Shown here one piece after another: positions 19,923-21,939 of a stretch of DNA of 25,684 nt (its first letter is position 1; each line of letters starts with the position of its first letter). The stretch spans positions 37,742 to 63,425 of the forward strand of contig NW_022985460.1 in the NCBI RefSeq assembly GCF_010093595.1, written 5' to 3'. This DNA comes from Mytilinidion resinicola (Eukaryota > Ascomycota > Dothideomycetes > Mytilinidiales > Mytilinidiaceae). The notes below the pieces were generated by a model. It saw only the letters and a list, made by a program, of their open reading frames with translations, was not told the DNA's origin and searched no databases. A program made the position numbers and the translations under genes.

Positions 19923-21636
19923 GAACCTGCCTAAAAAAGGGAATAAACGTCTCCGCTACTAGAGCTAGATAATTCTAAAGAGATTAAACTTTAAAAATAA
20001 AATAGAAAAAAAAACTATAAAAAAAGTAACTTTTAAAAATAAAGCTAAAATAATAGCTCTAGCACCCGTAAAAACCTGGTAAAAAGGCTTATTACCAACT
20101 CCCTTAGATAACGCCCTATAAGATAAATAAAAGACTAAGAAAGATATAGAACTACTTTTTATAATTACCGCCCTGCTAAGAATAGTATATAAAGAAAACC
20201 CTATCCCGCTATTAATCCTAAAAGCTTTAGAAGAAAAATACCGCTATTATATAAAGCTTATATTAGCTAAATACTAGAAAAAAAATAGATACCTATACTA
20301 TTAGAACTGCCTATATATACCCGACTATAATAAACTAAAGGTAGAACTTCTATATATATACTACAGGAACGCTATTACTAGCTACTCTAGAAAATCTAAA
20401 ATATATAACCTAATAGCCTATAGTTACTACTAGCCCGGAATACTACTTTATATAAACTATTAGGTTAGGAACTACTAGATATATAAAAGAACTACTCTAT
20501 TATAAAAAGCCTACTAGAGTATTCTAAAGCTGCTGCCTATTTCTAAAAAAGCCTGGCGTAATATATTAATAGATTTTATTACGCACCTACTGCATAGCGG
20601 AAAGTATAATATAATTTTTATTATAGTAGACCGCCTAACTAAAATAAAACACTTCCTTACCTGTAAAAGAACCTGTAATATAGAAGATATTATAAAACTT
20701 TTTCTAAAAAATATCTGGAAACTATATAGCCTGCCTGCCTCTATTATATCTAACTAAAAGCCCTAGTTTATAGCTAAATTCTAGAGACACCTAACTAGCC
20801 GCCTAAAAATTAACTGCCTACTATTAACTATATACTACCCCGAAACTAATAGCTAGACTAAAAGAGCTAACACTGTCCTAAAATAGTACTTACCGGCACA
20901 CGTATTCTATTTATAGGATAACTAGGCCGAATAGCTGCCTTTAGCTAAACTGTTAATTAATACTGTAAATTCCGAGAGCACCTGTATCTCCCCCTTCTTT
21001 ATAAACTACGGCTTCCACCTATGTTTAGGTTTTGAGCCGGTTGAACTGTTAACCCGCCCGCCTGCTAGAGATGCTGAGCGCTTCGCTAAGCGTATAGAAG
21101 AGATTCTGGAACATTTAAAGTCTAAACTTACTGCCTCCTGTGCCCGATATAAGGATAATATAAACTGTAACTGTCGCCCTGCTTGTAACTATTAAGTTAA
21201 CAACTTAGTATGGTTAAATGCTAAGAATATTAAGACCCTCCGCCCCTAGAAGAAGCTGGATTGGAAGAATCTTGGACTGTTCCGCGTAGAGAAGGTTGTT
21301 AGCCCTTATGCATACCGCCTAACCTTACCGGAGAGCATGCGCAACCACAACGTCTTCCACGTTAGTTTACTAAGACCTGCCGCGAATGATCCGCTGCCCG
21401 GCCAGCATCAAGAACCACCGCCGCCAGTTGAAGTCGAAGGCTTGGAGGAGTGGGAAGTCGAGGAAGTTGTCGACTCTCGATGGGAGCGTCGCGGTCGTGG
21501 CCGCCCCCGCCTGAAGTACACGGTGAAGTGGACCGGATACAACGAAGTCACAGAAGAGCCCGCTGACTATCTGGAACATGCCGAGGAAGCTATCCGGTTG
21601 TTCCATCGCCGTTACCCTGAAAAGCCCGGTCCTTAG
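19923..21636 (+). pseudogene. R1 pol, 3' part: integrase and chromodomain
   Basis: Resumes the R1 frame as ENLPKKGNKRLRY. The integrase zinc-binding region lies at about 20200-20500, with its Cys residues converted to Tyr. In the core the first catalytic Asp survives (20572-20574, LIDFITHL), while the second reads Asn (SNxKPxF) and the Glu reads Lys. Heavy RIP ends near 20950: after about 21060 only two stops remain (in CNYxVNNLVW and LRPxKKLDW). From 21337 to 21633 the frame is fully open, giving 99 residues with a clean chromodomain at about 21460-21610 (EVEEVVDSRW, KYTVKWTGYNEVTEEP). The stop is TAG at 21634-21636. Gene predictors may call this open tail a small gene; it is the pol C-terminus. 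Confidence 0.88.
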
Positions 21637-21656
21637 GCCTCAACGGAGTTCGGCCG

Positions 21657-21671
21657 TAAGGAGGGGAGTAC
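21657..21671 (+). other. R1 polypurine tract
   Basis: AAGGAGGGGAGTA directly upstream of the R1 3' LTR, between the pol stop and TGTCACGG; the expected plus-strand primer. Confidence 0.7.
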
Positions 21672-21939
21672 TGTCACGGCTTGAACGGTGAAGCTTGCTG
21701 CACAGCGTAACACGTGATGTTAGGACCCGGCGAGAGGCCTTGTTACAAGGGCCTATGCGAGCCTTGGCAGGAGTATACCTGCCGACCGCCGCCCTGCCTC
21801 CTTGTAGCTCCTTGAGCTACGTCTTGTTATTTAACCCGCCTGCCTGCCGTGCATTATAGAACACGTAGTGAATTCAGTTATTACTTCTACCTACCTGCCC
21901 GAGCTAGCTAGGGCAATCCTGCCGCCCGAGACCGTGACA
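21672..21939 (+). repeat. R1 3' LTR (268 bp, essentially unmutated)
   Basis: Starts TGTCACGG and ends CCGTGACA, an 8-bp perfect terminal inversion. It serves as the near-ancestral reference for the RIPed 5' LTR. Confidence 0.95.

What the first reader, a model, noticed from the sequence alone, without database searches (positions are those of the whole stretch)
20950..21939. Abrupt RIP boundary inside one element: 5' LTR mutated, 3' LTR pristine
From about 1.09 kb to about 20.95 kb the sequence is TA-saturated. Within roughly 100-300 bp inside R1 integrase it becomes clean through the chromodomain and 3' LTR. My hand alignment of the two R1 LTRs gives 33 differences with no indel or transversion, every one C/G on the right and T/A on the left. 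RIP would be expected to hit both LTRs of one element. This suggests either that the right end came from an unmutated copy (recombination or gene conversion) or that RIP spreading stopped at a boundary.
Basis: partly seen in the sequence, partly recalled or inferred. Interest (0 to 1): 0.75.

Follow-up and report, generated by a model that had tools for sequence, protein, structure and literature searches.

The report
Half-mutated retrotransposon joined from two insertions
A fungal jumping gene is heavily scrambled by the genome's own mutation defence on its left and nearly untouched on its right; its two ends lie in two different target sites, so it is most likely two copies spliced together, on top of a defence that often spares one end of an element.

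Summary
The boundary is real. R1 is a 5.76-kb LTR element with a chromodomain (2473-6215 + 19919-21939, split by nested elements). Its 268-bp LTRs differ at 33 sites, all C/G on the right and T/A on the left. At RIP-type sites the mutated fraction falls from 52% to 14% near 20.89-20.92 kb and to 3% near 21.31 kb.

Other copies show two things. (1) RIP often spares one end of an R1 here, even in single insertions with matching 5-bp target duplications, so unequal LTRs alone do not prove recombination. In 8 copies the step lies at 21.22-21.34 kb, reached independently; sparing tends to go with normal-GC flanks, with exceptions. (2) The window copy is nevertheless a join of two insertions: 5' LTR in repeat X, 3' LTR in an unrelated repeat (Tn), different 5-bp flanks, and uninterrupted copies of both sites elsewhere. 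No orphaned other half was found among the close matches, pointing to a deletion-type exchange between R1 copies.

I favour the main step as the join and the second as ordinary RIP fade-out. The join's position is not independently mapped. Chimeric LTR elements in RIP-active fungi are known (crapaud, Podospora): a new member of a known kind.

The parts
2473..2740 (+). R1 5' LTR, RIP-mutated
   Evidence: 33 RIP-type differences to the 3' LTR
2741..6215 (+). R1 internal region, left piece, AT-rich (end point by arithmetic)
   Evidence: inferred from uninterrupted copies (LTR-to-LTR about 5492 bp) and from the start of the nested LTR
6216..19918 (.). nested LTR element R3 (LTRs about 6216-6754 and 19379-19917) carrying nested R2 (LTRs about 11961-12363 and 17545-17947); mostly AT-rich, R2 LTRs less so (GC 0.52 and 0.49)
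19919..20889 (+). R1 right piece, heavily RIP-mutated part (about half of RIP-type sites changed)
20862..20928 (.). main boundary: sharp drop of RIP; most likely the join between two R1 copies
20917..21310 (+). lightly mutated part (16 of 113 sites)
21250..21636 (+). open stretch at the end of R1 pol: Tf2-1-type SH3 and chromodomain
   Evidence: PF24626, PF00385
21672..21939 (+). R1 3' LTR, nearly clean
1312..2472 (.). left target: repeat X, AT-rich; last five bases TAGTA (TAGCA in the X copy L131)
21940..23785 (+). right target: repeat Tn with a DDE_1 transposase frame at 22730-23785, not RIP-saturated; first five bases TCTAC (TCCAC in 3 of 4 Tn copies read)
   Evidence: that 21940-22740 and the frame are one element is inferred

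Best explanation
The window's R1 is a chimera of two R1 insertions. Its left part came from a copy inserted in repeat X, inside an AT-rich repeat block, and was heavily hit by RIP; its right part came from a lightly hit copy (or R1 end) inserted in repeat Tn, next to DNA of more normal GC. Ectopic homologous recombination between the two, most simply a deletion between two same-direction copies, fused them. The main RIP step near 20.89-20.92 kb is most likely the join; the smaller step near 21.31 kb is the ordinary fading of RIP over the last 0.6-0.7 kb of R1 that other copies show. Shown here: the step, the two different target sites, the missing target duplication, the absence of the other halves among close matches, and the fading in copies with matching duplications. 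Inferred: that the join lies exactly at the step, the deletion, and the order of events.
For: Flanks TAGTA and TCTAC differ at 4 of 5 bases, while 16 of 24 R1 copies with both flanks read have a matching 5-bp duplication (14 exact, 2 with one transition; left and right flanks of different elements match by the same rule in 7 of 552 combinations). Left flank continues in X copies (4 of 4 fetched run across the site) and right flank in Tn copies (4 of 4); neither continuation is in the window. All 12 X-right matches adjoin an X-left match, and the 4 best of 24 Tn-left matches (83% or more) adjoin their Tn-right; no orphan or reciprocal product among these. The window's step lies outside the zone of 8 other copies. 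A second copy with a strong contrast, L013, also lacks a duplication and has flanks from two different repeat families.
Against: L010, with a matching duplication, has the same three-level shape (37%, 13%, 1%) and a step that also lies outside the common zone (20758), so RIP fading alone can draw such a profile. By the simple count a step as sharp occurs in L018, which has a matching duplication (its range is wider). Copies differ almost only by RIP, so the join cannot be placed independently of RIP; it could lie anywhere in R1, including the 3' LTR. The 20 weaker Tn-left matches (66-81%) were not checked one by one. Misassembly cannot be tested without reads.
Confidence: 0.6

Rival explanations
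1. RIP fading only: RIP acts strongly in the body and weakens towards an end, more so where the end faces non-mutated DNA; the chimera is a separate event and the step is just the edge of RIP.
For: Steps at 21225-21340 in L012-L018 and L020 with RIP states that are uncorrelated between copies; copies with matching duplications and one cleaner LTR; cleaner 5' ends in L022, L024 and L031 (only L031 has a matching duplication); LTR cleanness follows the GC of the outer 680 bp (Spearman 0.55 over 49 ends, p 5e-5, both ends of some elements counted); L010 shows three levels and a step at 20758.
Against: The window's main step is 0.3-0.4 kb further in than that of the 8 copies, and its right part shows a separate second step at 21310. 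L011, L014-L018 and L020 keep clean or fairly clean 3' ends although their right flanks are AT-rich, so flank state is not the whole cause.
Confidence: 0.3
2. Partner-limited RIP: RIP covers only the homology shared with its partner. The nearest listed R1, about 10 kb away on the same contig in opposite direction, is broken by an insertion at the point equivalent to 20881-20888, so RIP of the window copy stopped there.
For: The break lies within the corrected change-point range 20864-20897. [quoted passage not shown]
Against: The same passage adds that single-copy DNA between close repeats can be strongly mutated. The neighbour's own right piece is heavily mutated (L029), so some partner reached it. 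One search lists 33 other copies of the 3' end. Several copies have breaks in this 2 kb (equivalents near 20885 twice, 21162, 21212, 21287), so a chance coincidence is not rare. The steps of the 8 other copies fit these breaks less well.
Confidence: 0.1

Closest known systems
crapaud LTR retrotransposon of Podospora (PMC10787394; passages read)
   Same: RIP-active fungus; RIP in LTRs of full copies, mostly clean solo/fragment LTRs; 7 of 150 full copies with disparate 5' and 3' ends, attributed by the authors to gene conversion or ectopic recombination
   Different: There the mismatch is between LTR subfamilies; here it is RIP state within one near-identical family, with the two target sites identified by uninterrupted paralogues
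RIP of repeats in Neurospora crassa (PMC4858203, start of abstract and passages; PMC7296669, start of abstract and passages)
   Same: C-to-T changes confined mainly to repeated DNA; CpA preference as stated in a passage of PMC10787394
   Different: Here RIP fades inside the repeat, in 8 copies at a recurring point about 0.6-0.7 kb from its 3' end
Ty3-type LTR retrotransposons with a chromodomain (name recalled; only Pfam domains were tested)
   Same: Tf2-1-type SH3 and chromodomain before the 3' LTR, LTRs with TG..CA ends, 5-bp target duplication
   Different: nothing notable; placement beyond Pfam was not done

Membership tests
RIP | only C:G to T:A changes between copies | tested here: met
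   33 of 33 LTR differences; 12 transversion columns among 30 copies over 2 kb, 11 of them in a single copy
RIP | CpA/TpG preference | tested here: met
   21 of 33 LTR changes at CpA/TpG; 32 of 47 sites mutated in L010 and in every copy other than the window, L010 and L011
RIP | cytosine methyltransferases of the RID/DIM-2 kind | tested here: inconclusive
   4 matches to PF00145 over the cut-off, at C13:775440, C13:1314229 and two close together at C9:1926575-1927515, one with a stop inside; not assigned to RID or DIM-2
RIP | acts in the sexual cycle | not testable with these tools
   needs crosses
Ty3-type LTR retrotransposon with chromodomain | Tf2-1-type SH3 and chromodomain before the 3' LTR | tested here: met
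   PF24626 2e-12, PF00385 2.7e-8
Ty3-type LTR retrotransposon with chromodomain | reverse transcriptase and integrase core of the Ty3 order | not tested
   the body is RIP-mutated and was not translated through
chimera of two insertions (ectopic recombination) | 5' and 3' LTR in different target sites, no shared target duplication | tested here: met
chimera of two insertions (ectopic recombination) | reciprocal product or orphan half-sites | tested here: not met
   none among 12 of 12 X-right and the 4 best of 24 Tn-left matches; the other 20 Tn-left matches (66-81%) not checked; absence is expected if a deletion removed them, so this is not a defining failure
chimera of two insertions (ectopic recombination) | crossover point placed by markers other than RIP | tested here: inconclusive
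   copies carry almost no non-RIP variants

The most novel reading that the evidence does not exclude
RIP tracts record the extent of homology with their partner copy: the window boundary copies a break (a nested insertion) in the nearest linked R1 at the equivalent of 20881-20888, so RIP boundaries could be read as fossils of past pairing partners.
Probability: 0.1. Interest if true: 0.65.

Novelty: new member of a known kind. Interest (0 to 1): 0.42.

Why it matters
LTR-to-LTR divergence is used to date insertions, and whole-element RIP indices to call a copy dead (general practice, recalled). In this genome both would mislead: one LTR of a single insertion may be spared by RIP, and some elements look like joins of two insertions. 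Because copies here differ almost only by RIP, RIP state together with target duplications helps to separate the two causes and makes this family a usable natural record of where RIP stops and where copies recombine.

Tried and rejected
RIP-mutated master copy: 37 sites at 20205-20956 and 6 at 21039-21300 are unmutated only in L011, which suggested that all other copies descend from an already mutated source. Rejected as the main cause: of 19 sites within 20917-21310 that are mutated in every copy other than the window, L010 and L011, 8 are mutated in both the window and L010, 7 in one of them, 4 in neither, and such sites are mainly CpA, as expected for preferred RIP sites. It is not excluded in part: at 20206-20655, 23 of 24 such sites are mutated in both.

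Shared ancestry of the recurrent step: residual correlation of RIP states between copies is about zero (mean -0.04; highest pairs about 0.2), so the steps arose independently.

A reciprocal partner of the exchange was sought by flank 5-mers and by half-site searches; none found among those checked. L038 has a right flank TAATA that could be a RIP-altered TAGTA, but its 5' end would lie off the contig, so it was not used.

Rows left out: 4 of the 34 matches were not fetched (the weakest, 72-77%). Of the 30 aligned copies, L011, L029, L030 and L035 were left out of the correlations, and the window, L010, L011, L029, L030 and L035 out of those. Flanks could not be paired for 6 of 30: L012, L016 (5' end not found), L015 (5' end masked), L033, L036, L038. 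L032 is counted as a mismatch although it differs by one base (a transversion). The pairings of L022 and L030 with their 5' ends rest on spacing with an insert assumed. LTR identities are to the window's own 3' LTR; to L005.

Full report
Setting. The window is C24:37742-63425 of an unnamed 47.1-Mb genome in 44 contigs. That it is a fungus is inferred from RIP and the elements; no taxonomy was looked up. Four matches to the cytosine methyltransferase family PF00145 pass the cut-off; they were not assigned to RID or DIM-2. R1 is an LTR element whose pol end carries a Tf2-1-type SH3 domain and a chromodomain. Uninterrupted R1 copies have LTRs 5492 bp apart. In the window R1 is 2473-6215 plus 19919-21939, interrupted by a nested LTR element (R3, LTRs about 550 bp, 87.6% alike) that holds another (R2, LTRs about 403 bp, 91.1% alike). 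In those nested elements RIP-type differences run in both directions between the two LTRs, with one transversion and one gap in R3, unlike R1, where all run one way.

The observation. The two R1 LTRs differ at 33 of 268 positions, all C/G on the right and T/A on the left. On an alignment of 30 copies of the 3' 2 kb (30 loci, window included, out of 34 matches), 565 columns are polymorphic in a RIP-like way. The window's mutated fraction drops at 20917 (range 20914-20929). Weighting each site by how often the more mutated copies L022-L038 changed it moves the point to 20889 (20864-20897). A second step, 14% to 3%, lies at 21310 (gain 7.0 units); 12/87 sites are mutated at 20930-21250 and 9/210 beyond (p 0.006).

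Other copies, for RIP fading. Of the 29 other aligned copies, 9 (L010, L012-L018, L020) also have a mutated body and a much cleaner 3' end; L019, L021, L022 and L023 are intermediate, L011 is clean over most of the stretch, and the rest are mutated throughout. Site-weighted steps: L012 21283, L013 21259, L014 21284, L015 21310, L016 21279, L017 21283, L018 21340, L020 21225, L010 20758. The body mutations of these copies are uncorrelated. Five-base target duplications match in 16 of 24 copies with both flanks read (L010, L011, L014, L017, L018, L020, L021, L023, L025, L027, L028, L029, L031, L034, L035, L037; L017 and L029 with one transition) and do not in 8 (window, L013, L019, L022, L024, L026, L030, L032). 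Flanks of different elements match by the same rule in 7 of 552 combinations. Of the 20 pairs, the 3' LTR is cleaner by more than 3 points in 8 and the 5' LTR in 3; six of those 8 (L010, L014, L017, L018, L020, L023) and one of those 3 (L031) have matching duplications. So one-sided sparing occurs in single insertions. In L017 the left duplication itself looks RIP-altered (GAAAC against GAGAC). L015 is cleaner at both ends, as far as its 5' end is readable.

What goes with sparing. LTR identity to a clean LTR rises with the GC of the outer 680 bp: rho 0.62 for 19 5' ends, 0.48 for 30 3' ends. The clean 3' ends of L010, L012, L013 and the window face GC 0.39-0.48; the clean 5' ends of L022, L024 and L031 face GC 0.39-0.45. 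Against this, L011, L014-L018 and L020 are clean or fairly clean at the 3' end beside GC 0.28-0.35. Of 14 solo-type LTRs with both flanks read, 9 are 97.7% or more identical to the window's 3' LTR (6 of these with matching 5-bp flanks: L003, L004, L005, L122, L124, L125), 2 lie at 95-97% (L119, L120), and 3 are mutated (L116, L117, L118).

The window copy is a join. Left of the 5' LTR lies repeat X; in the 4 X copies fetched X runs on across the site. Right of the 3' LTR lies repeat Tn; in the 4 copies fetched Tn runs on across its site. Neither continuation is in the window. Each of the 12 X-right matches adjoins an X-left match, and the 4 Tn-left matches of 83% or more adjoin their Tn-right; 20 weaker Tn-left matches (66-81%) were not followed. 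A normal insertion into a pre-existing X/Tn junction would still show a 5-bp duplication; it does not. A misjoin in assembly would be expected to leave the missing halves elsewhere; none is seen among the close matches, though they could be unassembled. L013 is a second case: left flank in one repeat family and right flank in another, with no match pairs closer than about 4 kb in the two lists, which are capped at 40 scored of 61 and of 196 candidates.

Reading. The chimera is well supported (my estimate 0.85). That the main step is the join is less sure (about 0.5): it is favoured by its position outside the zone of the 8 copies and by the separate second step near that zone, but L010 shows that a matching-duplication copy can have three levels and an outlying step too. 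A match, by chance or by cause, with the break in the neighbouring R1 (C24 about 70.2-83.6 kb, opposite direction, insert with about 539-bp direct repeats at equivalents 20881-20888) is kept as the novel case. A further copy, on C17, has an insert at 20883-20898 that does not match the C24 insert over the 1.1-1.5 kb read on either side; this hints at an insertion hot spot and lowers the weight of the coincidence.

Literature. Passages of PMC10787394, PMC4858203, PMC7296669, PMC12543289 and PMC10294615 were seen, no paper in full. In them I saw no report of RIP fading at a fixed point of an LTR element; this is a narrow search and not a claim of absence. PMC4858203 also states that 155 bp of perfect homology can trigger RIP between closely placed repeats, so a simple length threshold does not by itself explain why spared ends of 0.6-1 kb persist here.

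Noticed in passing
window 22730-23785 and 23900-25633: Two DDE_1 transposase frames in direct repeat (81% and 76% alike in the two 300-bp parts compared), not RIP-saturated; the second is a long open frame with a Tc5-type DNA-binding domain.
   Followed up: partly
R1 equivalent 20881-20898; loci L063/L029 (C24) and L059/L030 (C17): Two different inserts sit at nearly the same point of two R1 copies, close to the window's RIP boundary.
   Followed up: partly
L011 (C9:199573-202994): The least mutated R1 3' half among the 30 aligned, clean from about 20205 on, with a matching target duplication but a mutated 5' LTR and a gap at about 20957-21038.
   Followed up: partly
L035 (C5 about 95.4-98.2 kb): R1 with matching target duplication but too short to hold the whole body; its 3' piece starts at equivalent 21287, close to the recurrent RIP step.
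   Followed up: no
C4 about 1014.5-1025.7 kb (L037/L110 around L023/L079): One R1 (minus strand) appears to be nested in another (plus strand), each with its own matching 5-bp duplication.
   Followed up: partly
window 1-378: Tandem copies of a 126-bp unit (90% and 62% alike to the first) left of the AT-rich block.
   Followed up: no
window copy, L013, L019, L022, L024, L026, L030, L032: 8 of 24 R1 copies with both flanks read lack matching target duplications, suggesting frequent exchange between dispersed copies.
   Followed up: partly
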